Source of the DNA: Limnothrix sp. FACHB-406
GTDB lineage: Bacteria > Cyanobacteriota > Cyanobacteriia > CACIAM-69d
Length of the DNA stretch: 64,000 nucleotides
Reading direction: 5' to 3'
Assembly: GCF_014698235.1 (NCBI RefSeq)
Contig: NZ_JACJSP010000013.1
Span: forward strand, 1 to 64,000
Below the pieces are notes generated by a model, which worked only from the letters and a program-made list of their open reading frames with translations, ran no database searches and was not told where the DNA came from. A program made the translations under genes and the position numbers. Shown piece after piece: positions 27,284 through 46,833 of this stretch; the stretch's first letter is position 1; each line of letters opens with the position of its first letter.

Positions 27284-28315
27284 ATGACCATCACCACTTC
27301 TGAACAAGCCGCCGTTGAGCTTTATCAAGAGACGGCTGCCCAAGCCCGACACCCAGACGCAACCGATCCGCACGATCGCCTGTTGGTTTACCCTGCTTGG
27401 CTCTGGGACGGCTACATCCGAGAAGTGGAACTCCGGGAAGGCTTTGAAATCCAAGTCCATCACTACCGGCTGCGCGATCGCTGGGATGCGGCCCTGGCCG
27501 AGCGTGCCGAGTGGCTGTCGTTTCATTTCCACCTCTCCGGGCAGCACCAAGACAGTTACACCGAAGTCCACAACCTGGAATATGCCCTCTACGGCAGTGG
27601 TCTGGCCCCCAAGGATTGGATCATCGGCACAGACCGGAACCCGATCCTAGAAGTCCACATTTGGCTGTCGCCGCAGGTGTTTCAGTCCTTTGCGGGTCAA
27701 GACGGGGAACTCCCTCCGGCCTTGCGCCACCTTGTGCGGCCAGCCGACCAGCTCTACTACACCCGTGTGGGCAAAGTCTCAAGAGCCATGCAGCGGGTGC
27801 TGTGGCAAATCATTCGCTGTCCCTATCAGGGCATTACCAAGCGGATGTTTCTAGAGAGCAAGGCCCTGGAGGCGGTGATGCTGGTGCTGGCCGATGAGCT
27901 GAAAATTCAGCAGGAACAGCCATCAACCCATGAATCACCAAAGACTTGGGAAGGCGGCGCGGCGCTGGCGAACCTGAAGCCCGATGATATCGATCGCCTG
28001 CACCAGGCGCGATCAATCTTGCTGAAACACCTAGAGCAGCCCCCCTCATTGATGACTCTGGCGCAACAGGTGGGTCTGAACAGTCGGGCGTTAAAAGAAG
28101 GCTTTCGGCAGGTGTTTGGTCAGCCACCTTTTACCTATTTACATGACCATCGCCTAGAGCAAGCCAGACAGTTGCTCGAAACCGGCGAGCTAAAAGTGTC
28201 CGAAGTCGCGGCTGCTGTGGGCTTTGGCGATCGCAGTCACTTCGCCAAGCAGTTCAGAACCAAGTTCGGCATCAATCCCAAGCTCTATCAGGCCCAGCGC
28301 AAAAAGTTCTGCTAG
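27284..28315 (+). CDS. AraC-family regulator (PchR-like)
   Basis: 343 residues. The C-terminal 100 residues carry two helix-turn-helix motifs (PSLMTLAQQVGLNSRALKEG; VSEVAAAVGFGDRSHFAKQF) with the usual FGINPKLYQAQRKK ending. The N-terminal part resembles PchR and related ferric-siderophore sensors. It directly precedes a TonB-dependent receptor and a PepSY membrane protein in the same direction, which supports a role as siderophore-dependent activator of that unit. The inducer is unknown. Confidence 0.87.
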   Translation: MTITTSEQAAVELYQETAAQARHPDATDPHDRLLVYPAWLWDGYIREVELREGFEIQVHHYRLRDRWDAALAERAEWLSFHFHLSGQHQDSYTEVHNLEYALYGSGLAPKDWIIGTDRNPILEVHIWLSPQVFQSFAGQDGELPPALRHLVRPADQLYYTRVGKVSRAMQRVLWQIIRCPYQGITKRMFLESKALEAVMLVLADELKIQQEQPSTHESPKTWEGGAALANLKPDDIDRLHQARSILLKHLEQPPSLMTLAQQVGLNSRALKEGFRQVFGQPPFTYLHDHRLEQARQLLETGELKVSEVAAAVGFGDRSHFAKQFRTKFGINPKLYQAQRKKFC

Positions 28316-28412
28316 CCCCCAAAAAAAGTACCGCGACTCACCAAAACGGCTTTGTTTTGCTGTTAGCCCTTGCTAGGCTCCTGAAAGTCTTTCTCAACTG
28401 CGGTGTGGGGTC

Positions 28413-30899
28413 ATGGTGAATCGGTTGTCGGGTCTGGTTGTGGCGAGCGTGCTGTCGGTGGCAGGGCCGCAGGCCGTTTGGGCCGAAGACAACCCCATTC
28501 CTCGCGTCCAAGACCTTGGCCATCCTGCAACCAACCTACGGGAATGGCGAGCGCAAATTGAACGGGCCACCGTGCAAGTAACCGGCGTGCAACTGAACCG
28601 CACTGATACGGAACTTGAAATCGTCCTAGAAAGCGCCGAAGATCAGCCCCTGGAAATTGATGCGACTCAGTTCCGTACTGAGGGCAATAGCCTCGTTGCC
28701 GAGATTCCGAATGCCGTGCTGGCACTACCCGCAGGACAAGCCTTTGTGGCGGAGAACCCGATCGCTGACATCGCCACAGTGCAGGTGACGCAGCAAGACA
28801 GCAACACGATCCGGGTCAGCGTCACCGGAACCAACGCCCTGCCCACCACCGAAGTGACCCTGACCACCGCCGGCCTGGCCTATAGCCTCAACCCTGCCGG
28901 GGAGGAGCCAGACGAAGAACTCGTGGTTACCGGAGCAGGGCAACGGGGCTATCGCGTACCAAACTCCGCCGCCGCAACGCGAACAGATACGCCCTTACGC
29001 GATATTCCCCAATCGATTCAGATCATTCCCCAAGAACTGCTGCAAGACCAACGGGCTGACGTGACCAGCGCCTTGCTGAATGCGCCTAGTGTGCGGGTTG
29101 GCTCGCCGTCTAACTTTGACGCGGTGCGGGCCCAGGTGCGAGGCTTTTTCACCTCGCCCACCGTCGATGGCATAGTCGCACGGGATTTTAATGGGGTCTC
29201 TGCCAATATTGGCCCTGACCTCACGGGGATTGAGCAAATTGAAGTGCTCCAAGGGCCCAACTCCATTTTGTTTGGCTCATCCTCTCCGGGAGGAACGATC
29301 AACTTTGTCACAAAGCGCCCTTTGAGCGATCCCTATTACTTTGTGGAAGCGAGCGCGGGCAGCTTCGATTTTTACCGGGGCGAAGTGGATCTGTCTGGCC
29401 CCCTCGATCGCGACAAAAACATTCTTTATCGACTGAATTCTTCCTATCGCGACCAAGAGCTTTTCACGGATTCCAGCCGAACTAGAAACTTCGTGATTGC
29501 GCCAGTTCTGAGTTTTGCCTTGGGTGAAGACACCACACTCAGCGTTGAAGGCACTTACAAACATTTGTCCCGTGATAACGCCACCCACGGACTGCCGATT
29601 GTGGGCACAATTTTGGATAACCCCCTGGGGGATGTGCCGCGCAACCGCAACCTGACGGAAAGTGATGCTGAAGTTCGACAAACCCGAATTGGCTACAAGC
29701 TGGAGCATCAATTTAATGAAAATTGGTCATTAAATCATGCGTTTCGATATGGGTGGATGGAGTTTGACACCTTTGGCCGATTTCCGGGAGCGCTGGGTGC
29801 TGACAATCGAACTTTATCAACCAGCTTTTCTGACATTTCCGATCAGTATTTTGACTATCGGATGACTACGAATGTGGTGGGTAAGTTTGCGACTGGCTCC
29901 ATTCAGCATCAATTATTATTTGGGGTTGATTTAGGGCGATCGGATATTGAGCTGAAGTTCACGGGGCTAGAAGGCCCGCCCATTGATTTGTTTGATCCCG
30001 CCTTTGGGGCATCGCCTGGCGCGGTGACCTTTAGCAGTGAAGACAGCATTGTGACCGATGAGCTGGGGATTTTGCTGCAAGATCAAATCACCCTAGCAGA
30101 TAACTTGAAGGTGCTGATCGGTGGTCGGTTTGACATGTTTAGACAGACTGGCGATTTCGGCAATCCCGATCTGGTTCAGACGGGCGAGGCCTTTAGTCCT
30201 CGGCTAGGGATTGTTTATCAACCGATCGAACCGATTTCTCTGTATGCCAACTACAGTCGATCGTTTGAACCAACTATTGGTCGTTCTCGCGACGACAGTA
30301 CTTTTGAGCCTACCCGAGGAACCCAGTTTGAAATTGGGGTGAAAGCCGATTTAAGCGATCGGCTTTCGGCAACTTTAGCGTGGTACAACATCACCCAAAA
30401 AAATGTGCTAACCACCGATCCCGTTGATGACAACTTCTCAGTGCAAACGGGAGAGCAGCGGAGTCGGGGTGTTGAACTCAGCGTGGCAGGGGAGATTTTG
30501 CCAGGGTGGAATATTTTTGCCAGCTATGCTTACAACGACGCAAGAATCACCGAGGACAATAACTCGGATCTGGTGAATAACCGTGTCCAACGCACTGCGC
30601 CCCATGCAGCAAGTTTGTGGACAACCTACGAAATTCAGGAAGGCGATTTTCAAGGGTTGGGATTTGGCGTGGGCTTGTTTTATGTGGGCGATCGCGCAGG
30701 TGACAACGCCAATACGTTTGAGTTGCCGAGCTACCTGACAACTGATGCCGCAATTTTTTATAAACGGAACGGATTCCGCGCGGCAATCAACATCAAAAAC
30801 CTCTTTGATGTGGAGTACTTTGAAGGGTCTTTCAACCGCAACCGCATCTTTTATGGCGCACCGTTGACCGTGCAAGCCAGTTTTTCTTGGACGTTTTAA
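28413..30899 (+). CDS. TonB-dependent siderophore receptor with AMIN domain
   Basis: 828 residues, outer membrane. A signal peptide (LVVASVLSVAGPQAVWAED) is followed by an AMIN domain (about residues 45-150), then the TonB box region EELVVTGAG. The plug domain has TPLRDIPQSIQIIPQELLQD and IEQIEVLQGPNSILFGSSSP with GGTINFVTKRPL. A 22-strand barrel follows, ending INIKNLFDVEYFEGSFNRNR and the terminal Phe of the last strand (SFSWTF). The fused AMIN domain is typical of cyanobacterial receptors. Gene order suggests iron-siderophore uptake; TonB, ExbB and ExbD are not in the window. Confidence 0.94.
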   Translation: MVNRLSGLVVASVLSVAGPQAVWAEDNPIPRVQDLGHPATNLREWRAQIERATVQVTGVQLNRTDTELEIVLESAEDQPLEIDATQFRTEGNSLVAEIPNAVLALPAGQAFVAENPIADIATVQVTQQDSNTIRVSVTGTNALPTTEVTLTTAGLAYSLNPAGEEPDEELVVTGAGQRGYRVPNSAAATRTDTPLRDIPQSIQIIPQELLQDQRADVTSALLNAPSVRVGSPSNFDAVRAQVRGFFTSPTVDGIVARDFNGVSANIGPDLTGIEQIEVLQGPNSILFGSSSPGGTINFVTKRPLSDPYYFVEASAGSFDFYRGEVDLSGPLDRDKNILYRLNSSYRDQELFTDSSRTRNFVIAPVLSFALGEDTTLSVEGTYKHLSRDNATHGLPIVGTILDNPLGDVPRNRNLTESDAEVRQTRIGYKLEHQFNENWSLNHAFRYGWMEFDTFGRFPGALGADNRTLSTSFSDISDQYFDYRMTTNVVGKFATGSIQHQLLFGVDLGRSDIELKFTGLEGPPIDLFDPAFGASPGAVTFSSEDSIVTDELGILLQDQITLADNLKVLIGGRFDMFRQTGDFGNPDLVQTGEAFSPRLGIVYQPIEPISLYANYSRSFEPTIGRSRDDSTFEPTRGTQFEIGVKADLSDRLSATLAWYNITQKNVLTTDPVDDNFSVQTGEQRSRGVELSVAGEILPGWNIFASYAYNDARITEDNNSDLVNNRVQRTAPHAASLWTTYEIQEGDFQGLGFGVGLFYVGDRAGDNANTFELPSYLTTDAAIFYKRNGFRAAINIKNLFDVEYFEGSFNRNRIFYGAPLTVQASFSWTF

Positions 30900-30948: not shown

Positions 30949-32106
30949 ATGGAATCACCACAAAAGCCTTTACCAAAATCACTCACTCGCCTGCTTTCTG
31001 CCAAACTCAGAACGATTTCTTTCTTCATTCATCGCTGGTTAGGTTTGGCGATCGGGATTTTGTTGTGCATTGCGGGTTTGACTGGCAGCGTTCTCGTTTT
31101 TTGGCACGAAATTGATCATTGGGTGCTGGTTCAGCGGCTGGGAACCGTTGTGCCTGCCGGGACAATAGTGCCCGTTGCTGCCATCATCGAATCGATCAAA
31201 ACGGCCTATGGGAAAAAGCAATGGAACCTCAGCACGGTTGCGCCACCCCAATCAGCCCAGGAACCCTATCAAGCCTGGTTGGAAACCCCAGCGCATCACC
31301 ATTGGCAGGTGTTTGTGCATCCCTACACGGGGCAAATTATGGGCGATCGGGAATGGGAAACCAGTTGGGTTGGCCTAATTTATGACCTCCATTACAAACT
31401 GCTGGCAGGGGAAACAGGAACCCTAATTATGGGCATTGTTGCGTTGCTGACGCTGATCTTGGGCCTCACTGGCATTGTGTTGTGGCCGGGCTGGCGCAAC
31501 TTCATGGCTGGATTCAAAATCAAGTGGAAAAATGCCCATATCAAACGAACCAACTTTGATATTCATAAAGTTTCAGGCATTATTACTGCAATCTTTTTGG
31601 GCTTGATTGGGTTCACTGGATTTGCCTGGAATGTGCCTCAAGCCAAGGTGAATGAGGCGATTTATGCTGTTACTTTCACGCCCAAGCCAGCCCCGCCAGT
31701 TTCCAAGCCTATTCCAGGTCAGCAGCCTTTATCCATTGCTGAGTTGATCCAGCGAGCTGAAGCGGTGATTCCCGATGCGACGATGACCTATATCGTGCTC
31801 CCTAAAAAGCCGGAATCTCCATTGATTGTGAGCAAGCGGCAAACCCAAGAAAGCTCGCAATGGGGCAATACTAGAGTGGCGATCGATCAGTTTACCGGTG
31901 AGTTAATTCAACTGACTGATGGGCTGAAGCCGACTCGGGCGGAGGCGATTATGAGTCAATTTGATGCGGTTCACTTTGGGACTTTTGGCGGTCTGGCAAC
32001 TCGAATTCTTTACGTTTTCGTTGGGTTGGCTCCCCTAGCGCTATTAATCACTGGTTTCGTGATGTGGAAGCATCGGCGCAGGGTTCCCAAGCCGGGCCAT
32101 TCCTAA
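30949..32106 (+). CDS. PepSY-associated membrane protein (iron uptake)
   Basis: 385 residues with four membrane segments: LAIGILLCIAGLTGSVLVFW, LIMGIVALLTLILGLTGIVL, GIITAIFLGLIGFTGFAWNV and LYVFVGLAPLALLITGFVMW. The large periplasmic loops carry PepSY-like sequence. IHRWLGLAIG and FDIHKVSGIITA provide conserved histidines that may bind haem or metal. Such proteins usually accompany TonB receptors and are proposed ferric-siderophore reductases. It lies 49 bases after the receptor gene. Confidence 0.88.
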   Translation: MESPQKPLPKSLTRLLSAKLRTISFFIHRWLGLAIGILLCIAGLTGSVLVFWHEIDHWVLVQRLGTVVPAGTIVPVAAIIESIKTAYGKKQWNLSTVAPPQSAQEPYQAWLETPAHHHWQVFVHPYTGQIMGDREWETSWVGLIYDLHYKLLAGETGTLIMGIVALLTLILGLTGIVLWPGWRNFMAGFKIKWKNAHIKRTNFDIHKVSGIITAIFLGLIGFTGFAWNVPQAKVNEAIYAVTFTPKPAPPVSKPIPGQQPLSIAELIQRAEAVIPDATMTYIVLPKKPESPLIVSKRQTQESSQWGNTRVAIDQFTGELIQLTDGLKPTRAEAIMSQFDAVHFGTFGGLATRILYVFVGLAPLALLITGFVMWKHRRRVPKPGHS

Positions 32107-32273
32107 GTCAATGAATTTATTAGTTGCACTACGGATCTTGATTTGGAGGCGATCGCCCAACTCAGGACTGATGACCTGCTGAACCCCTAAAACCAATACA
32201 GCTTTTACCGAAAACGATTAGTACGCTATATCGAAGATGCTATGAGGCAGTTAGTAGCTGTGCAGTGCCCATC
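32107..32273. other. Junction between core genome and AT-rich island
   Basis: Just after the PepSY gene the base composition shifts. A frame running through 32196-32300 (FYRKRLVRYIEDAMRQLV) is uninterrupted but has no start and may be a gene remnant. A palindrome fragment (gcccatcctacggg) at 32265-32281 belongs to the same repeat family as 33654-33798. Confidence 0.35.
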
Positions 32274-33581
32274 CTACGGGCCACTATCTCCCGCACCAAT
32301 ACCAAGCTTGCGGAGTATTTCCCAAACTGGTAGGAATGATCTAAATGTATGATAAGAGTATTTTGGTATATTATCAGCGTAGTACAAATTATCAAAATTC
32401 ACCAAATAGATATACTCAATATATCTCAAGTATATCTTCCGAAGTAGACCGGTTTCATATATGTCTAGATTGTGCGTAAATACAGAACTAATGACGCTTG
32501 TTTTTACGCCATACCAGTCAGGAAGTGAAATTTCGGATTCTATTTTCTTATGATCTGTTGTTAGAAAGCATCGATCAAATTCACTTTTTACTATTTGAAT
32601 TGCAAGTCCATGAAAGTTATATTCCAATTCTGAAAACCAATATTTTCTTGAATCTTCATCAAGTTGATCGTAAATAGATTGTATTTCTGAAGATCGTCCC
32701 TTAGCAGTCTCACCATAAACGACATCATTATCGCAAGAGTTTCTAAACGAGGCGAAAGGGTTTATGAAAACTGCATATATTACATTGGGGTGAGGGAGAA
32801 TGTCTGCAATTTCTCCCCAATTTTGAGTAGCGTAGACAATCGCATGAAAGCCTTCTGCTTCAAGTCGATGAGATATTGAGCTTGAAATTGTATTTAAAGC
32901 CTTTCTAGAATAATCAGGGATTATTTGTTTATTATCTTTGTCTGTATCTATCCAGCCGCTTAGTTCTTCAAATTCTATGGCAACAGTGTACATTGATCTA
33001 TCGTCGAGTAAATTATTTTCAAACCATTGGTAGTATGATGAATCTGGGTAGTAAACAGTTAGTATTATTTCGCCGTTATCCTGTTCTGATGGAATAAAAG
33101 CAGCAGAAGAGTGGTTATTCCATAACACTTCTTGTACAAAAGCATCTCTGACTGTTCTTGTTTCCATTGGTGCGATCAATATGGTATTTACACCTTGTTC
33201 TGCTAAACCAGGGAATATTGAGTAGAAATGATTTGCATAAGCTAAAAGTTCAGTAAAGGCTTGTCGCTCTGTCTGCTTTGATTTTTTTAGCTCAATAATC
33301 GTTAAGCCTATACATTCAGAATTGCCAAATAAGTCAATTCGTGTGGTTGAGTTGCCTTGCTTTTCTAGTCGTAACTCTTTTGCAGAAAGAATAAGTGACT
33401 CAAGACCATCAATAATCCGGTTGATTTTTTCTTCAACAATTTGTTGAAGCAATATACTTATTGGGGGAAAACCATCTCCATTCCAAACAATTGGATCACG
33501 TCGCCCTTTAATAATTTTGAACAAAGATTCTTTATGTTTTTCATAAATCAGATCCCTCAACTGATTTTCGCTTAATTTCAT
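32274..33581 (-). CDS. PD-(D/E)XK nuclease-like protein of unknown function
   Basis: 435 residues in an AT-rich gene without GCGATCGC sites, preceded by GGAAGG. The N-terminal 125 residues look like a PD-(D/E)XK nuclease core of the RecB kind: helical lead-in with Glu (EEKINRIIDGL), TTRIDLFG with Asp83, IGLTIIELKKSKQ with Glu97 and Lys99, and RQAFTELLAYANHF, which fits the QxxxY helix. The remaining 300 residues are not recognised and contain no ATPase, HTH or membrane segment. Single proteins with this architecture occur in defence-rich islands, but no known system is identified. Composition and position indicate acquisition by transfer. Confidence 0.7.
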   Translation of the reverse strand: MKLSENQLRDLIYEKHKESLFKIIKGRRDPIVWNGDGFPPISILLQQIVEEKINRIIDGLESLILSAKELRLEKQGNSTTRIDLFGNSECIGLTIIELKKSKQTERQAFTELLAYANHFYSIFPGLAEQGVNTILIAPMETRTVRDAFVQEVLWNNHSSAAFIPSEQDNGEIILTVYYPDSSYYQWFENNLLDDRSMYTVAIEFEELSGWIDTDKDNKQIIPDYSRKALNTISSSISHRLEAEGFHAIVYATQNWGEIADILPHPNVIYAVFINPFASFRNSCDNDVVYGETAKGRSSEIQSIYDQLDEDSRKYWFSELEYNFHGLAIQIVKSEFDRCFLTTDHKKIESEISLPDWYGVKTSVISSVFTHNLDIYETGLLRKIYLRYIEYIYLVNFDNLYYADNIPKYSYHTFRSFLPVWEILRKLGIGAGDSGP

Positions 33582-33653
33582 TTAAAGCCTTCCACAAATT
33601 TAGATACAAGATAACTCGTCTCGATAAAATATCGTCGAACAACTCCAGACCTA

Positions 33654-33798
33654 CCAGCTAGTAGGGTGGGCATTGCGATCTAGCCAAAATGGTATCTATC
33701 CTTAAAACAGGAATTGCCTCTCCCCGGAGTTTGATTGGATAGCTTTCACTATGGACTATGGGTATAGGTGGACATTGCCCACCCTACTGGCTGGCTAG
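33654..33798. repeat. MITE-like element with inverted ends
   Basis: agtagggtgggcattg (33660-33675) and its inverse cattgcccaccctact (33773-33788) agree at 15 of 16 positions and enclose about 97 bases. Flanks ccagct and ggctggctag extend the similarity loosely. No coding capacity. A short form of the same palindrome occurs at 34639-34660. Confidence 0.65.
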
Positions 33799-33803
33799 TA
33801 TAG

Positions 33804-34073
33804 CTACTCATCCTGTTTGAGGCTTTCGATAGCTGATACTACGTCCTGGAGAATTTCCCCAAACCCACTTAGTTGCTCATCAAATGCATCACCGTTAGCG
33901 GCGTAGAGTGAGTTTTGTCTCTCCATTTCCAACGCCTTTTTTGCTTGAATGACATCGGAAACAGAGATGTTGAACTCCTTGGCTAGGTGCGTTGCACTCT
34001 CCAAGAATGATCTCAAATCGCCTGAAGAAATGAGACGGTAGTTCCGTGGTTCCTGCTCGAATAATGTGCCCAT
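33804..34073 (-). CDS. Small helical protein of unknown function
   Basis: 89 residues. GAGGAG stands 7 bases before the ATG at 34073, so expression is credible. The N-terminus is soluble; LAKEFNISVSDVIQAKKALE could be a short helix-turn-helix but is too brief to call. The rest is an acidic helix ending AIESLKQDE. It reads in the same direction as the nuclease-like gene 220 bases downstream, from which it is separated by the MITE-like element. Confidence 0.6.
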   Translation of the reverse strand: MGTLFEQEPRNYRLISSGDLRSFLESATHLAKEFNISVSDVIQAKKALEMERQNSLYAANGDAFDEQLSGFGEILQDVVSAIESLKQDE

Positions 34074-34196
34074 AGTAATCTCCTCTATCAATCAGTTTCA
34101 CACTGTCATTTTGGTTAAAGTTTAATACTTAGACTTTAACAACAGGATGACACCCTCATCTTCCGATCGTAGCTTCTGGCATTGTCAGGATCTATC

Positions 34197-34242
34197 AATT
34201 CGGCAAGACGATCGCCCGTGGAACCCAGCCTGCCCGATCGCC
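34197..34242 (-). pseudogene. Copy of the last codons of the M14 peptidase
   Basis: Read on the minus strand it encodes GDRAGWVPRAIVLPN-stop, against GDRAGWVQRAIVLPNS-stop at the true end of the peptidase gene (35466-35516). 41 of 46 bases agree and most differences are synonymous. No upstream part of the peptidase is present here. The antitoxin and EF-G domain IV genes lie between the two copies. Confidence 0.8.
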
Positions 34243-34261
34243 CACCAGAACCAACGCAGTG

Positions 34262-34552
34262 TTAGGCAATGGGCACAACATGGAGACGTAACCCAAGCAC
34301 CTGTAAAACCTTGAGAACCGTAGCAAACTCTGGATTACCTTCGATTGACAAAGCCTTGTAGAGACTTTCACGCCCCAACCCTGTTTCACGGGCAATCTGG
34401 GTCATCCCTTTAGAACGGGCAACATCTCCCAACGCTGCTACGACTAGGCTCGGATCACCCTCTTCAAGAGCAGCTTCCAGATAAGCAGCGATATCTTCCT
34501 TGGTTTCCAGATGATCTGCTGCATCCCAAGAATGAGTTTGAACGATCGCCAT
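34262..34552 (-). CDS. Antitoxin of the HigA-like addiction-module family, without toxin
   Basis: 96 residues with an XRE-type helix-turn-helix: GMTQIARETGLGRESLYKAL, and the family ending FATVLKVLQVLGLRLHVVPI. The N-terminal YLEAALEEGDPSLVVAALGD is diagnostic for the addiction-module antidote group whose toxin is a RelE/HigB-like killer encoded just upstream. Here the upstream 110 bases hold only a REP-like palindrome and no toxin gene, so it is an orphan. GGGAG precedes the ATG. It may regulate its own promoter or protect against an incoming toxin. Confidence 0.85.
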   Translation of the reverse strand: MAIVQTHSWDAADHLETKEDIAAYLEAALEEGDPSLVVAALGDVARSKGMTQIARETGLGRESLYKALSIEGNPEFATVLKVLQVLGLRLHVVPIA

Positions 34553-34638
34553 AGAAACTCCCTATAGGTCGTTTGCTGAATCTAAGGCTGTTTAAATATC
34601 TCTTTCCTGAGTGCGTTGATTTTCTCCTGAAATAAGGA

Positions 34639-34660
34639 TAGGTGGGCAATGCCCACCCTA
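34639..34660. repeat. REP-like palindrome
   Basis: TAGGTGGGCA and TGCCCACCCTA face each other with almost no loop. It lies between the antitoxin gene and the EF-G-like gene and is related to the ends of the element at 33654-33798. Confidence 0.75.
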
Positions 34661-34664
34661 CTGG

Positions 34665-35171
34665 CTAAGTTGGAGAAATAGGGATAATTGCATTCTCTAT
34701 CGGATCGATCAAATATAATGCCTTTTGATACATTAGTTGTTTCATAACATCAACGAACCATTTGCGAGCGCAAATTTCAAAAGCTATAATGCTTGAATCC
34801 ACATCATGGTAAGCACCGTCTACAAGTTCAACTTCTATGTTCATAATAGGATATCTGTCAAAAATTTCTGATTCAATCGCTTCAGATAAGCCTCTTTGAA
34901 TTCCAGGAATACATTCAGAAGGAATTTCAATCCCTAACTCAATTGCTCCAGATAAGCCTCTTTGAATTCCAGGAATATATTCAGAAGGAATTGCTCCTCC
35001 TCTTATACGATCAATAAAAGTAAATCCAGCGCCAGATTGATTTGAACGTAATCTAGCTACTATTTTGGCGTATTGCCTGGCACTACCGCTTGACTTTTGA
35101 TGCGTGAACTCATGTTCCACATCTACATCATCGGCAATTTGTACGTAATAAGCCACATCTATTTCGCTCAT
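34665..35171 (-). CDS. Stand-alone elongation factor G domain IV-like protein
   Basis: 168 residues that match EF-G domain IV and nothing else of EF-G: VDVEHEFTHQKSSGSARQYA (loop at the start of the domain), GFTFIDRIRGGAIPSEYIPG, IMNIEVELVDGAYHDVDSSI and AFEICARKWFVDVMKQ. The tip histidine of the YHDVDSS loop is kept. There is no GTPase domain, so it cannot be a translocase on its own. Residues IPSEYIPGIQRGLSGAIELG are repeated as IPSECIPGIQRGLSEAIESE, a duplicated helix. AGGAAG precedes the ATG. Similar short proteins exist in cyanobacteria as far as I recall; function unknown, binding to ribosomes or tRNA mimicry is a guess. Confidence 0.82.
   Translation of the reverse strand: MSEIDVAYYVQIADDVDVEHEFTHQKSSGSARQYAKIVARLRSNQSGAGFTFIDRIRGGAIPSEYIPGIQRGLSGAIELGIEIPSECIPGIQRGLSEAIESEIFDRYPIMNIEVELVDGAYHDVDSSIIAFEICARKWFVDVMKQLMYQKALYLIDPIENAIIPISPT
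34884..34992 (-). repeat. 66-base in-frame duplication inside the EF-G-like gene
   Basis: Two near-identical 43-base blocks begin at 34884 and 34950, period 66 bases or 22 codons. They differ by one base in the part compared (Cys/Tyr codon). The duplication adds one extra helix to the domain. Confidence 0.88.
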
Positions 35172-35465
35172 ATATTTCTTCCTCAGGAGCGTTTTTGCAA
35201 ATAAGGCGGAATGTCAAGGGTGCGCTGAACTTTAATCTGTAGCGTGACTCATAAACTGGTCAACTTTTTTGCGTCGGCTCCAACGTTCTTGTTATTTCAA
35301 CAGAGTCCCCCAAGATATGGGCGTGCCAGAAGCCTGAGCTTATCCATCACTATATTGCCGCCTCTAGCAACTCATGTCCTCAATCACGGTGGTCGAAGCG
35401 ATCGCAACTCCTCAAATAACCCTGTCTAGCTGTTAGCCTGTCGTGGTTTCTGAGATTGTAAAAAT
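35172..35465. other. Intergenic end of the island behind the M14 peptidase
   Basis: 294 bases between the start of the EF-G-like gene and the stop of the peptidase. It should contain the promoter of the island genes. No gene, terminator with T run, or tRNA is seen. Confidence 0.35.
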
Positions 35466-37160
35466 TTACGAATTTGGCAAGACGATCGCCCGTTGTACCC
35501 AACCAGCCCGATCGCCCCGGGCCGTGAGATCCACCACCATTCCTGGTTCGCCACGCACCAGCCAAACCACCCGCGATCGATCGTCCGTCGGATCCATGTG
35601 GTCGTAATAGGGCGTAGTCGGTTGGTGCGATCGCCCCGCCAGATGACCCAAACTCACTTCCGGTTGACCGCTGATCAGCTCCGCACCCGGCGGTAGGGCG
35701 ATCGCCGCGCGACAGGGTTGCACCGCCCCCTTTTCGATCGCCTTTTGCGTGCCATTGGTCGGCAGCCAGCCCGTGTTTTGCACCACCCACTCCACTTGGA
35801 ACAGCCGATCGCCCAAGGATTGCGCCGTGGCCTTCACCGGTTCCAGGCGCGGCGAAATCAGCAATTGCCACAGCAGCCAGCGGGGAAACCGTTCGATTTC
35901 TCGTTCCAACAGGTGAGCCGGTGGGTTGCGCCAGGTGCAAATTTGGTTCCAGCCGCCCAGTTCCACCTTGCCCAGTTGCGGATGCTCCCAGGCGTACCAA
36001 TCCACATAGCCGCGCCCGTCCAGCACCTCATCGTTCCACTTCAGCAGCGCCAAATCTTCCTCGATCGGGTGGTCGTCCAGCCATTCCAGCAGTTTCGGCG
36101 TTTTCACCCCCGCCGCTTGGGGCAAGTTCCACAGCTCCACCGTCCAGGCAAATAGCCCCCGCTCCTCATAGCACCAATCGTCAAAGGCTCCGGTCATCAC
36201 GTTTTTCGGATGGTCGCAGTAGCCCTCAAACACGCTGGTGGCGGGGTAGTCCGTCAGTTCCGTGCCCTTTTGCCCGATCGCCCGGTAATTCAGCCAATCC
36301 GCTTGGGGCAATTCCATATCGGTGGCGTGGCTGTAGGGACGCAACAGCAGGCCGCCAAAGGTGTGAAAGGCCACGGCGGCGTTCAGGTTGGGGTGATGGG
36401 CAATGAAGTCCGCGATCGCCCGCGTTTCCGGCTCCGAGGTGGGATAGTTGCCTGCGCCGGTCTGTTCCGGTTCCGGTCGCCACTGCATCGGGAAATTGCG
36501 GTTTAGATCCAACCCTTCGATCGGGCGTGGCGTGGTGATCGTCGCGCCGTCGTAGCGATCAATCCGGCCCTCCGGCAGCAGTCGATAGTAAGTGCCGCCG
36601 GTTTCGATCGGGTCGCGCCGCACCAGCAACCGGGGATCGCGATCGGACACTTTCCAGGCCCCATTCGGATCGGGCACACGCATCCAAAGGATCCGCCCGT
36701 CCCCATCGATATCTTCCATTTGCAGTTCGCTGGGGCCGCCCGCCAACCGATCGCCCGGATAGGGTCGAGTGCTCGATCGCACAAATTTGGGGCGATCGGC
36801 CAGGGCCAGCTCGGCTCCGTCGGGATTCACGCGAGGGCAAATATAAAACGTCCGCGAATCCAGACAGCGGGTAACGTCCGGATCGCTGCCGTAGTGCTTT
36901 GTCAAAAAGTCGAGGAGATAGAGGCAGGCCGTGGAAGGCGCAAGTTCCGTGGCGTGGATATTGCCATCCACCCAGAGGGCTGGCTTGTGGCGATCGGGCC
37001 CCGTCTCGCTATTGGTGATGGTTAGTAACCAAATATCCCGGCCCTCGTAGCTGCGGCCAATCGATGCCAATTGGACAAGCTGCGGAAATGCGGCCGCGTA
37101 GCTCTGCAAAATCTCCGACAGTTCCGCATAGCGGTAGAGACGATCAAAAGAAACCTGACC
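35466..37160 (-). CDS. M14-family zinc carboxypeptidase
   Basis: About 564 residues. Zinc ligands are visible as GNIHATELAPST (His and Glu of HxxE) and, 180 residues later, AAVAFHTFGG (third His). The catalytic Glu is in LFAWTVELWNLP. Between them lie the substrate-binding Arg/Asn block PIEGLDLNRNFPMQW and CPRVNPDGAE. The C-terminal 150 residues form an extra beta-rich domain (LFQVEWVVQNTGWLPTN). No signal peptide is evident. The ATG at 37160 begins MGQVSFDRLYRYAELSEI; an ATG at 37205 is possible. Its final codons are duplicated at 34197-34242. Confidence 0.92.
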   Translation of the reverse strand, partial: GQVSFDRLYRYAELSEILQSYAAAFPQLVQLASIGRSYEGRDIWLLTITNSETGPDRHKPALWVDGNIHATELAPSTACLYLLDFLTKHYGSDPDVTRCLDSRTFYICPRVNPDGAELALADRPKFVRSSTRPYPGDRLAGGPSELQMEDIDGDGRILWMRVPDPNGAWKVSDRDPRLLVRRDPIETGGTYYRLLPEGRIDRYDGATITTPRPIEGLDLNRNFPMQWRPEPEQTGAGNYPTSEPETRAIADFIAHHPNLNAAVAFHTFGGLLLRPYSHATDMELPQADWLNYRAIGQKGTELTDYPATSVFEGYCDHPKNVMTGAFDDWCYEERGLFAWTVELWNLPQAAGVKTPKLLEWLDDHPIEEDLALLKWNDEVLDGRGYVDWYAWEHPQLGKVELGGWNQICTWRNPPAHLLEREIERFPRWLLWQLLISPRLEPVKATAQSLGDRLFQVEWVVQNTGWLPTNGTQKAIEKGAVQPCRAAIALPPGAELISGQPEVSLGHLAGRSHQPTTPYYDHMDPTDDRSRVVWLVRGEPGMVVDLTARGDRAGWVQRAIVLPNS

Positions 37161-37890: not shown

Positions 37891-40380
<2,490 letters not shown>

Positions 40381-42885: not shown

Positions 42886-43076
42886 CCGGTTGCCGCCGAT
42901 CGCTCGGCCCGGTCAGGAAGCGCGATCGCCCCCAGGCCAGCGGCAACGCCGAAGCCACATCGGGGCAAGACGGGATAAGAAGTAGTAGGATTACGGTGTA
43001 AATTTGCCCCCTCTGGGCGATCGCCCGCTTCTTGCCCGGCCGGCAAGCCATCACCGATGTTGTTGTCTCGTCCCGT

Positions 43077-44411
43077 ATGAGTTCTGCCCTTACCGAACTG
43101 GCGATCGTTGCGGCCTTGACGGTTGCGAACGGGATTTTTTCAATGTCGGAAATGGCGATCGTCTCGTCCCGCAAGACGCGCCTGCAAAACCGAGCGGAAC
43201 GGGGCGATCGAGCGGCTCGCGCAGCCCTGGCCCTGGCGGAATCGCCCAACCAGTTTTTATCCACCATCCAGATTGGCATCACCCTGATCGGCATCCTCAC
43301 GGGGACTTTTGGGGGTGCTTCTTTGTCGGCGGAGTTGCGGCCAATCCTGGAAGCCGTGCCACCATTAGCCCCCATGAGCGGGGCCCTGTCGGTGGTGATC
43401 ACCGTGGCGGGCATTACTTATCTTTCGTTGGTGGTGGGCGAGCTGGTTCCCAAGCGGTTGGCCCTGGGCAATCCAGAACAGATTGCGGCCAATGTGGCGC
43501 TACCGATGCGGTGGTTGTCGCGGATTACGGCTCCGGTGGTCTATTTGTTGAGCCATTCCACGGATCTGATTGTGCGATCGCTTGGAACCACGGTTTCCAG
43601 CGAGCCGCAGGTGACGGAAGAAGAAATTAAGCTGCTGTTGCAACAGGGCACGGAAGCGGGCACGGTCGAAGAAGCCGAGCAGGAGATTGTAGAGCGGGTG
43701 TTGTCGCTGGGCGATCGGCCCGTCAGCTCCGTGATGACTTCCCGCCGAGAGGTGGTGTGGCTGGATTTGGATGCGCCTTTGCACGAGACGATCGAGCAAA
43801 TCATCAACAGCCACCACCAGCGATTCCCCGTCTGTCGCGACAGTTTGGATGAAGTCGTTGGGTTCATTCAGGTGAACGACCTGTTGGCCCAAACCCTGAT
43901 GAATCAGACCCTAAATTTAACGGACTGCCTGCGTCAGCCGTTGATTGTGCCGGAAACCACGGGCACGTTGCGGATTTTGGAGATGTTCCGCGAAACGGGT
44001 CTGCATATTGCATTGGTGGTGGATGAATACGGCGTGGTGCAAGGGTTGGTGACGATCAACGACATGCTCGAAGCGATCGTGGGCGACCTGACCGATGTGG
44101 ATGAGGAAGACACGCCCAAGGTGGTACAGCGGGAGGATGGTTCCTGGCTGGTGGATGGGATGTTGGCGATCGAGCGGATGCGCGATGAATTGGATATGGC
44201 TGAACTGCCCGGTGAGCGGGAAGGACGCTACCAAACCGTGGCGGGCTTCGTGATTGCTTCGTTGGGCCACATTCCCAAGGCCACGGACACGTTTCACTGG
44301 AATGGCTTCCGGTTTGAGGTGGTGGATATGGATGGCAACCGGGTTGATAAAATCCTGGTTTCCAAACCCAGCACGGCTCCGAGCGCTTCAGAGCCGCCCA
44401 CGGCTGATTAA
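43077..44411 (+). CDS. CNNM/CBS/CorC membrane protein (hemolysin-C-like)
   Basis: About 444 residues. The N-terminal CNNM domain has four hydrophobic segments (IVAALTVANGIFSMSEMAIV; IQIGITLIGILTGTFGG; VVITVAGITYLSLVVGEL; ANVALPMRWLSRITAPVVYL). Two CBS domains follow (RPVSSVMTSRREVVWLDLDA; LRQPLIVPETTGTLRILEMF) and a CorC/HlyC transporter-associated domain closes the protein. Such proteins are Mg/Co efflux or Mg-sensing transporters; the old name hemolysin is misleading. The ATG at 43077 was preferred to a TTG at 43032. Confidence 0.9.
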   Translation: MSSALTELAIVAALTVANGIFSMSEMAIVSSRKTRLQNRAERGDRAARAALALAESPNQFLSTIQIGITLIGILTGTFGGASLSAELRPILEAVPPLAPMSGALSVVITVAGITYLSLVVGELVPKRLALGNPEQIAANVALPMRWLSRITAPVVYLLSHSTDLIVRSLGTTVSSEPQVTEEEIKLLLQQGTEAGTVEEAEQEIVERVLSLGDRPVSSVMTSRREVVWLDLDAPLHETIEQIINSHHQRFPVCRDSLDEVVGFIQVNDLLAQTLMNQTLNLTDCLRQPLIVPETTGTLRILEMFRETGLHIALVVDEYGVVQGLVTINDMLEAIVGDLTDVDEEDTPKVVQREDGSWLVDGMLAIERMRDELDMAELPGEREGRYQTVAGFVIASLGHIPKATDTFHWNGFRFEVVDMDGNRVDKILVSKPSTAPSASEPPTAD

Positions 44412-44839: not shown

Positions 44840-45160
44840 GCTTTGTCAGGTAAGGGGTGATCACCTGACCCCCTTGTGGAAAACTGCCCGATCGGGGCAA
44901 AATCTGTGGAAAACCTGTGGAAAAGTACCCCTATTCTGTGGAAAACCTGTGGAAAAATACCCCTCTTTCTGTGGAAAAAAAAAAGTGTCTGTGGAAAACT
45001 TGACTAAGTATAAATACCCTGTGGAAAAATACCCCCCCTTTTTCCACAGGGTTTTCCACAGGGTGTGATCGCTGAAAGGTTCATGAAATAAGGATTTTTT
45101 TGAGTTTTCCACATTTCCACAGGGCCCTACTACTACTATCTATTTAAAAAATAAGAAAGA
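44840..45160. other. Candidate chromosomal replication origin (oriC)
   Basis: Eleven exact DnaA boxes TTTTCCACA. Eight read on the minus strand, at 44875, 44905, 44916, 44937, 44948, 44970, 44990 and 45020. Three read on the plus strand, at 45040, 45052 and 45105, followed by a one-mismatch box ATTTCCACA at 45113-45121. AT-rich DNA lies on both sides (44700-44840 and 45139-45175). After the last box come GGGCCC and four CTA triplets (45127-45138), the layout of a DnaA-trio element. dnaN begins 560 bases to the right, as at the known origin of Synechococcus elongatus. Confidence 0.9.
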
Positions 45161-45684
45161 GAAGAAGAGATAGATAGTCCAGCCCAAAAATTTTCTTGGA
45201 AACGGCCAAAATTCTTCGGGGAGACGGTCTGTTTCTCTCGAACTCAGGATCCAGTTTTTAGCCTAGTCGATCGAGCCGGAATCGCAACCGACCAGTGAGG
45301 CAGTGGCCGCTAGGGGCTGGAGACGACAGGGTTCGAGCTGGGCTGAGTTTGAAACCCAGCGGTTGACGGATCCGAAAACGGCTAAAACCCAGACAGAATC
45401 AGGATCTGAGCGCTCAAAGTTCGCTGCGCTTGAGGCCGAGCCGATCGGCAAGTCTGAGGGCGATCGAACCCTTTGAAAACGGCTAAAACCCAAGCCAGGC
45501 TTTGATTGTTGCGATCGCGCTTCGACTTTCCAGCAGGCGATCGGGCTGCAAAGTCACGGGTTACTCCCGATGGCCAAAACGGCGATTTTGGGTTAAACTC
45601 AGGGCTGCTCATCGGGGCCAAATTTCCCCCGGCGGCGGTCGCCGTTTTCCACAGAACAGCCCCGAAACCCAAGCCCCAGAAGCC
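45161..45684. other. Leader region of dnaN
   Basis: No gene. The 18-base sequence starting gaaaacggctaaaaccc occurs exactly at 45374 and 45476. The promoter of dnaN should lie here; the second half is GC-richer and includes gcgatcgc at 45511. Confidence 0.4.
45645..45653 (+). promoter_or_regulatory. DnaA box in the dnaN leader
   Basis: Exact TTTTCCACA, 31 bases before the dnaN start and 530 bases from the main cluster. Its place fits autoregulation of dnaN by DnaA, which is known in other bacteria but not shown here. Confidence 0.6.
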
Positions 45685-46833
45685 ATGAAGCTGCTTTGCG
45701 CCCAAAGCGACCTGAGTGCCAACCTGTCCCTGGTCAGCCGTGCCGTCCCGTCACGGCCGACGCACCCGGTTTTGGGCAATGTGCTGCTGACCTGCGATGC
45801 GGGCACTCAGCGCGTGAGTTTGACCGCCTTTGACCTCAGCTTGGGCATCCAGACCAGCTTCCCGGCGGAAGTGGAAGATTCTGGGGAAATCACGTTGCCG
45901 GCCAAGCTTTTCGCGGACATTGTGGGCAAGCTGCCCAACGGCACGGTGTCGCTGGATGCGAACGAGGACTGCTCAGCGGCAATTTCCGCCCAGTCCAGCC
46001 GCTACCAGATTCAGGGCATGAGCGCCGAAGAATTCACAACCCTGCCGGTGGTGGAAACGGGCGAAGCGGTTTACCTGCCGGTGGCGGCGCTGTTGGAGGG
46101 GATGCGCGGTTCCCTGTTCGCCGCCAGCAACGACGAAACGAAGCAGATTTTGACCGGGGTTCACCTGTCGGTGGAGACCGATTCCCTGGAGTTTGCGGCG
46201 ACCGATGGCCACCGGCTGGCGGTGGTGCGGGCGGCAATGGTGGAGGACGAAGAGACGGAAACGGGTACGGTGGAACCCTTTGCGGTGACGGTTCCGGGTC
46301 GGACGCTGCGGGAGCTGGAGCGGATTTTGGCGGCGCAGCAGTCGAGCGAACCGGTGGCCCTGTACTGCGATCGGGGGCAGTTGGCCTTGCAGTGGGGAGA
46401 TTATTACCTCACCAGCCGCACCCTGGAAGGGCAATACCCGGCTTATAACCAGCTCATTCCCCGCCAGTTCGATCGCCAGGTGACCGTGGAGCGGAAGTTG
46501 TTGCTGGGGGCGCTCGATCGAATCTCGGTGATTGCTGACCAAAAGAGCAACCACATCGTCAAGTTCTCGATCGACGCAACGAACCAAAGTCTAGGCATTT
46601 CCGCCGATGCACAAGATGCGGGCAGCGGTCGCGAAACGATCGAATCGGCCCAAATTTCCGGTGAGGACATCGACATCGCCTTCAACGTCAAGTACTTGAT
46701 GGAATCGCTGAAAAACCTGACCACAACAGAGATTCAGCTTCAAATGAACACGCCCACCAGCCCGGTGGTGATCACGCCTTTGGGTGGCGCAAAGGCAACC
46801 CATTTGGTGATGCCGGTGCAGGTGCGGAGCTAG
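45685..46833 (+). CDS. dnaN: DNA polymerase III subunit beta (sliding clamp)
   Basis: 382 residues, complete. MKLLCAQSDLSANLSLVSRA at the start; three repeated clamp folds; the hallmark FAATDGHRLAVVRA near residue 170 and the C-terminal GGAKATHLVMPVQV with the conserved MPV/MRL-type end. It forms the ring that tethers the polymerase and recruits repair and initiation-control proteins. The frame is open for 61 codons upstream of 45685, but that DNA contains a DnaA box and no clamp-like sequence, so the ATG at 45685 is taken. Confidence 0.98.
   Translation: MKLLCAQSDLSANLSLVSRAVPSRPTHPVLGNVLLTCDAGTQRVSLTAFDLSLGIQTSFPAEVEDSGEITLPAKLFADIVGKLPNGTVSLDANEDCSAAISAQSSRYQIQGMSAEEFTTLPVVETGEAVYLPVAALLEGMRGSLFAASNDETKQILTGVHLSVETDSLEFAATDGHRLAVVRAAMVEDEETETGTVEPFAVTVPGRTLRELERILAAQQSSEPVALYCDRGQLALQWGDYYLTSRTLEGQYPAYNQLIPRQFDRQVTVERKLLLGALDRISVIADQKSNHIVKFSIDATNQSLGISADAQDAGSGRETIESAQISGEDIDIAFNVKYLMESLKNLTTTEIQLQMNTPTSPVVITPLGGAKATHLVMPVQVRS

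What the first reader, a model, noticed from the sequence alone, without database searches (positions are those of the whole stretch)
44840..45160. A compact replication origin with eleven exact DnaA boxes next to dnaN
Seen: eight TGTGGAAAA and three TTTTCCACA within 240 bases, plus one near-match, none broken by a gene. Spacings of 11 bases recur (44905/44916, 44937/44948), and the boxes flip orientation at about 45030. Known: the origin of Synechococcus elongatus lies upstream of dnaN and uses TTTTCCACA boxes, while many other cyanobacteria lost a recognisable origin or DnaA dependence. Inference: this is the functional oriC of this genome.
Basis: partly seen in the sequence, partly recalled or inferred. 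Interest (0 to 1): 0.82.

Follow-up and report, generated by a model that had tools for sequence, protein, structure and literature searches.

The report
Cyanobacterial chromosome replication origin beside dnaN
This is the place where a cyanobacterium most likely starts copying its chromosome, an ordinary kind of bacterial origin, but the search around it also turned up two further sets of binding sites for the same starter protein, one of which sits in front of the same small unknown gene across most of the phylum.

Summary
In detail: 11 exact TTTTCCACA boxes lie at 44875-45113 (8 minus, 3 plus), a 12th near-match at 45113, and an exact box at 45645 just before dnaN. It is an oriC of the known cyanobacterial dnaN type. 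That pattern occurs once in this 4.50-Mb genome, at this spot, and once per genome in most of the 154 of 390 cyanobacteria that have it. dnaA is present and intact on another contig. GC skew is inconclusive.

Testing whether other box clusters exist gave the more novel result. The genome has two small phased arrays, 3' of guaA and 5' of a DUF2811 gene. The DUF2811 array is conserved: 113 of 130 loci have at least one exact box within 1 kb upstream, in fixed orientation (263 boxes same-sense, 18 opposite, 3 control), at 21-22 bp pitch, including lineages where DnaA is reported dispensable for replication. I found no paper on it. Whether DnaA binds there, and whether it regulates or titrates, is untested.

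The parts
44875..45028 (-). Left array: 8 exact DnaA boxes (44875, 44905, 44916, 44937, 44948, 44970, 44990, 45020), all in one orientation, spacings 30, 11, 21, 11, 22, 20, 30
   Evidence: helical phasing
45004..45019 (+). Element CTAAGTATAAATACCC, core palindrome GTATAAATAC, abutting the central box; unknown role
   Evidence: element plus box in 10 of 30 cyanobacterial dnaN loci, in none of 269 guaA, trpB and DUF2811 loci
45040..45060 (+). Right boxes 1 and 2 (45040-45048, 45052-45060), opposite orientation, pointing to the unwinding site
   Evidence: same arrangement in relatives
45105..45113 (+). Right box 3 (exact), the stronger box of the tandem pair of the unwinding module; 13 bp before the trio
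45113..45121 (+). Near-match box ATTTCCACA, the weaker second box of the pair
45122..45126 (+). GC-rich spacer GGGCC between box and DnaA-trios
   Evidence: alignment
45127..45138 (-). DnaA-trios: CTACTACTACTA on +, i.e. four 3'-GAT-5' on the minus strand
45139..45180 (.). AT-rich stretch after the trios, probable DNA-unwinding element
   Evidence: 66% A+T over 45122-45180 against 50% in 45180-45300
45645..45653 (+). Single exact DnaA box 32 bp before the dnaN start codon
   Evidence: a box near the dnaN start also in G001 and G002
45685..46833 (+). dnaN, DNA polymerase III beta clamp (the longer ORF from 45502 is a mechanical extension)
43032..44411 (+). CNNM/CBS/CorC_HlyC membrane protein gene, left border of the origin

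Best explanation
The region 44872-45180 is the chromosomal replication origin (oriC) of this cyanobacterium. DnaA, made from a separate locus, loads on eight helically phased boxes on the left and on the right-hand boxes that point to the unwinding site. From the tandem boxes at 45105 and 45113 a DnaA filament runs over the GGGCC spacer onto the four 3'-GAT-5' trios of the minus strand at 45127-45138, opens the AT-rich DNA behind them, and so lets the replicative helicase load. Shown here: the sites, their order, their phasing, their conservation, the uniqueness of the box-trio module in the genome, and an intact dnaA. Inferred from studied relatives: binding, melting and that replication starts here in a DnaA-dependent way.
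For: Eleven exact boxes in 239 bp, 0.81 expected in the whole window; densest cluster of the genome. Pattern TTCCACAN{3,5}CTACTACT occurs once in the genome, at 45115, and almost always once per genome in the 154 of 390 cyanobacterial genomes that have it; the backward control pattern hits only about a dozen genomes. In 30 dnaN loci, 28 have exact boxes upstream of dnaN, left boxes in one sense and right boxes in the other, and most end in box-box-GC-CTACTACTA. Distances fit published rules for this module: 13 bp from the stronger box to the first trio, tandem pair with the stronger box upstream (PMC8287927), and the S. elongatus module of this kind was shown to unwind in vitro with its own DnaA (PMC8287927). 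Boxes are conserved more than spacers among four relatives: 75% against 41% identical columns. dnaA is complete with domains I, III and IV. Of 17 genomes lacking dnaA none has the box-trio pattern, against 154 of 373 with dnaA.
Against: GC skew is not decisive: minimum 7 kb away on the contig, and no switch at dnaN in a same-family genome. Several cyanobacteria with dnaA and boxes replicate without DnaA (PMC7198777), so presence of the site does not prove its use. The dnaA association is not corrected for phylogeny. No coverage or marker-frequency data.
Confidence: 0.87

Rival explanations
1. A relict or partly used origin: the site descends from oriC, but this cyanobacterium now starts replication independently of DnaA at this or many sites, as reported for Synechocystis 6803, Nostoc 7120 and Synechococcus 7002.
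For: DnaA-oriC independence arose several times in cyanobacteria (PMC7198777); skew here is weak.
Against: The box-trio module is intact and the boxes are better conserved than the spacers in the family; in the Nostoc-type family f32 the exact box-trio pattern is missing from every genome listed, so lineages of that kind do not keep it well.
Confidence: 0.1
2. A DnaA titration or dnaN-regulating region and not the origin; the origin is elsewhere.
For: Two other box arrays without a trio exist in the genome, so box clusters alone do not make an origin; one box lies 32 bp before dnaN.
Against: Only this cluster has the trio module and the two-sided arrangement.
Confidence: 0.03
3. For the satellite arrays outside the window: they act on transcription, the one 5' of DUF2811 controlling that gene, so that DnaA couples replication to a small protein of unknown function.
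For: Fixed orientation and place upstream of DUF2811 in 113 of 130 loci; a conserved TTGACA-N17/18-CACAAT-like promoter between array and gene; the partner gene on the other side (trpB) is shared only within the genus.
Against: The array lies some 150-250 bp before the -35 element in the loci aligned, far for a simple activator; the guaA array sits between two convergent 3' ends, where no promoter is expected.
Confidence: 0.5
4. For the satellite arrays outside the window: they are DnaA sinks or DnaA-nucleotide switches like datA or DARS of E. coli or the DnaA-box clusters of Bacillus, setting free DnaA and hence the time of initiation.
For: guaA array between convergent genes; 21-22 bp pitch, all boxes in one sense, suited to a cooperative filament; triplets in 126 of 373 genomes with dnaA and 1 of 17 without, the exception a 21-bp tandem repeat on a 26-kb contig.
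Against: No IHF-like site or nucleotide effect tested; chromosomal distance to oriC unknown (draft genome).
Confidence: 0.35

Closest known systems
oriC of Synechococcus elongatus PCC 7942 (dnaN-linked, TTTTCCACA boxes)
   Same: Place upstream of dnaN, box sequence, box plus DnaA-trio module (functional in vitro for S. elongatus, PMC8287927).
   Different: More boxes in the left array than in the small-genome family f12 that I take to be S. elongatus-like from its size (6-7 exact boxes in L026 and L029); the GTATAAATAC element is absent from those two.
Basal unwinding system (BUS) of Bacillus subtilis oriC
   Same: Tandem boxes, GC-rich spacer, trio repeats of 3'-GAT-5', AT-rich DNA behind.
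   Different: Box is TTTTCCACA rather than TTATCCACA; a large phased array lies on the other side of the flip.
oriC of Cyanothece ATCC 51142 (circular chromosome)
   Same: Intergenic before dnaN, TTTTCCACA boxes; DnaA domain IV binding shown by footprint (PMC4674748).
   Different: Three boxes there, eleven here.
datA / DARS of E. coli and DnaA-box clusters of B. subtilis (for the satellites only)
   Same: Small groups of DnaA boxes away from oriC, some between genes.
   Different: Strict 21-22 bp pitch and one sense; linked to guaA/cation efflux or DUF2811; no IHF or Fis site looked for.

Membership tests
Cyanobacterial dnaN-type oriC | Cluster of TTTTCCACA boxes far above chance | tested here: met
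Cyanobacterial dnaN-type oriC | Intergenic position upstream of dnaN | tested here: met
Cyanobacterial dnaN-type oriC | Only such cluster in the genome | tested here: met
   next largest clusters have 4 and 3 boxes and no trio
Cyanobacterial dnaN-type oriC | Complete dnaA in the genome | tested here: met
   485 aa, DnaA_N, Bac_DnaA, Bac_DnaA_C
Cyanobacterial dnaN-type oriC | Switch of cumulative GC skew at the site | tested here: inconclusive
   V shape on the 119-kb contig with minimum 7 kb away; none in G004
Cyanobacterial dnaN-type oriC | Replication starts here, DnaA-dependent | not testable with these tools
   needs read depth and mutants
Basal unwinding system (BUS) | DnaA box within 16 bp of at least three trios with a central A | tested here: met
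   four GAT trios, 5 bp from the near box and 13 bp from the exact box
Basal unwinding system (BUS) | Strand opening by DnaA on this sequence | not testable with these tools
   shown for S. elongatus only (PMC8287927)
datA/DARS-like titration locus (satellites) | Cluster of DnaA boxes outside oriC, conserved in place | tested here: met
datA/DARS-like titration locus (satellites) | DnaA binding with ATP hydrolysis or nucleotide exchange, IHF/Fis dependence | not testable with these tools
   no data; not filed as a member

The most novel reading that the evidence does not exclude
Cyanobacteria carry, besides oriC, a phylum-wide DnaA target: a phased array of DnaA boxes a few hundred bases 5' of a DUF2811 gene (and in many lineages a second array 3' of guaA). 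It would be an ancestral non-replicative job of DnaA in cyanobacteria and could explain why dnaA is kept where it is dispensable for replication.
Probability: 0.55. Interest if true: 0.75.

Novelty: new member of a known kind. Interest (0 to 1): 0.5.

Why it matters
The origin itself adds one more well-formed cyanobacterial oriC with a DnaA-trio module, useful as a marker of DnaA dependence: the module was found in none of the 17 genomes that lack dnaA. The satellite arrays matter more. What DnaA does in cyanobacteria that replicate without it was left open by the people who found the effect (PMC7198777). A conserved, oriented box array in front of one small gene of unknown function gives a single locus on which that question can be tested by ChIP and by box mutation.

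Tried and rejected
GC skew as proof of origin: tried on the own contig and on 260 kb of G004, inconclusive. trpB as the partner of the second cluster: rejected, only the genus has it; the constant neighbour is DUF2811. Known RNA family in the gap between array and DUF2811: none in Rfam at the gathering threshold. Solved-structure relative of DUF2811: no credible match (best E 0.05), so its ribbon-helix-helix look is only an impression from the sequence. Literature on DUF2811, or on DnaA with guaA in cyanobacteria: nothing relevant in the held library. First count of boxes in minus-strand dnaN loci gave false zeros because those loci are not flipped; redone. Structure prediction was not used: the protein of interest lies outside the window.

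Full report
Observation. The window holds 11 exact TTTTCCACA boxes between 44875 and 45113, eight on the minus and three on the plus strand, with the near-match ATTTCCACA at 45113-45121. The whole window would hold 0.81 by chance; no shuffle of 100 reached 12. The boxes fill part of a 1.27-kb gap between a CNNM/CorC-type gene and dnaN, whose real start is the ATG at 45685. Genome-wide there are 72 exact boxes against 22 for the same word read backwards.

Anatomy. The eight left boxes stand at spacings 30, 11, 21, 11, 22, 20, 30, that is, on one face of the helix (Rayleigh R 0.90 at 10.5 bp; 142 of 20000 random placements as good). After the flip come boxes at 45040, 45052, 45105 and 45113, all pointing right. 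Directly after the last one the sequence reads GGGCC CTACTACTACTA TCTATTTAAAAAATAAG. This is the box, spacer, DnaA-trio order of the basal unwinding system (BUS). It follows the published rules: at least three trios within 16 bp of a box, tandem boxes with the better one upstream, about 10-13 bp from the better box to the trios; here 13 (PMC8287927). The same paper showed unwinding by S. elongatus DnaA on its own module. The pattern TTCCACAN{3,5}CTACTACT occurs once in this genome, at 45115, and in 154 of 390 cyanobacterial genomes, nearly always once.

Conservation. Of 30 dnaN loci (own genome and relatives), 28 have exact boxes upstream with left boxes in one sense and right boxes in the other, and most end in the same box-box-GC-CTACTACTA module. 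In four genomes of the family 75% of box columns but 41% of other columns are identical. A further element, CTAAGTATAAATACCC at 45004-45019 with the palindrome GTATAAATAC, abuts the central box; with its box it is found in 10 of 30 dnaN loci across families and in none of 269 guaA, trpB and DUF2811 loci. I do not know what binds it.

Initiator. dnaA is single and intact (485 aa; DnaA_N, Bac_DnaA, Bac_DnaA_C) on contig C16. In the 390-genome sample 17 genomes lack the DnaA C-terminal domain; none has the box-trio pattern, against 154 of 373 others (Fisher p 2e-4, not corrected for phylogeny).

Skew. Cumulative GC skew on the 119-kb contig has its minimum at 37,970, 7 kb from the cluster; in G004 of the same family there is no switch at dnaN over 260 kb. 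Irregular skew is usual in cyanobacteria (PMC7198777). This check neither supports nor refutes.

Verdict on the finding. It is oriC, of the known dnaN-linked cyanobacterial kind. Box numbers from 1 to 12 have been reported for the phylum (PMC4674748), so eleven is high but not new. That it fires, and depends on DnaA, is inferred; relatives exist in which DnaA is dispensable.

Satellites. There are two. On C2 three boxes (195734-195784, pitch 21, 21) lie between the convergent 3' ends of guaA and a cation-efflux gene. On C10 four boxes (28601-28663, pitch 21, 22, 11) lie between a DUF2811 gene and trpB. The trpB link holds only within the genus. Triplets of this pitch occur in 127 of 390 genomes and the backward control in none. 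Their neighbours recur: guaA 3' end, cation-efflux 3' end, DUF2811 5' side, and a protoporphyrinogen-oxidase-like gene. Of 31 guaA loci from the genome sample 22 have two or more such boxes downstream; in a named set 16 of 79 do, none of them a Nostoc, Calothrix, Fischerella, Microcoleus, Okeania or Crocosphaera locus.

DUF2811. In 130 loci, 113 have at least one exact box within 1 kb upstream in the sense of the gene, 83 at least two, 48 at least three: 263 boxes in that sense, 18 in the other, 3 backward controls in 128 kb. The pitch is 21-22 bp in 100 of 128 neighbouring pairs; the guaA arrays and much of the oriC spacing fall on the same helical multiples. Family f32, which groups with Nostoc and Anabaena by guaA similarity, keeps one exact box and one or two one-mismatch boxes at 22 bp in all six loci read, though its genomes lack the exact box-trio pattern; box pairs beside dnaA remain there. 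Between array and gene lies a conserved sigma-70-like promoter, TTGACA-N17/18-CACAAT or similar. The sample leaves out the marine picocyanobacteria, whose DUF2811-like matches are weak, and contains related species and some paralogues, so the counts are not independent.

Is the ligand DnaA? The word is the DnaA box and the array spacing matches oriC. Triplets occur in 126 of 373 genomes with dnaA and 1 of 17 without (that one is a 21-bp tandem repeat on a 26-kb contig). Two within-genus contrasts agree: one g145 genome with dnaA has a triplet, two g145 genomes without dnaA have none; likewise one against one in g88. This is suggestive, not proof.

Meaning. The guaA array between convergent genes speaks for a sink or switch; the DUF2811 array with a promoter behind it speaks for regulation. 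Both could be true. The authors who found DnaA-independent replication wrote that the function of DnaA in those species remains unclear (PMC7198777); the DUF2811 array offers a place to look. I found nothing on DUF2811 or DnaA at guaA in the held library, which does not cover most subscription journals.

Noticed in passing
G000:C10:28601-28663 (locus L002 5002-5064), outside the window: Four phased DnaA boxes 5' of a DUF2811 gene (28167-28364, minus); same array in 113 of 130 cyanobacterial DUF2811 loci, orientation fixed.
   Followed up: yes
G000:C2:195734-195784 (locus L003 5035-5085), outside the window: Three phased DnaA boxes between convergent guaA and a cation-efflux gene; conserved in many Leptolyngbya-like lineages, in some (f34) only the efflux-gene side is kept.
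   Followed up: yes
window 45004-45019: CTAAGTATAAATACCC with palindromic core GTATAAATAC next to the central DnaA box, conserved in 10 of 30 dnaN loci and not at other box arrays; possible site of another origin-binding protein.
   Followed up: partly
L209, L222, L233, L266 (G053, G299, G290): Box triplets also recur beside a protoporphyrinogen-oxidase-like gene (four loci, two of them the same place in G299).
   Followed up: no
G163:C1:1013555, C1:3066576, C5:12099, C6:69102: One genome has four identical copies of the box-trio pattern TTCCACAGTCTACTACTACT, two of them on other contigs; perhaps a mobile or plasmid-borne origin.
   Followed up: no
window about 31000-36000: G+C falls to about 0.39-0.49 against 0.55 around it; possibly a foreign segment.
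   Followed up: no
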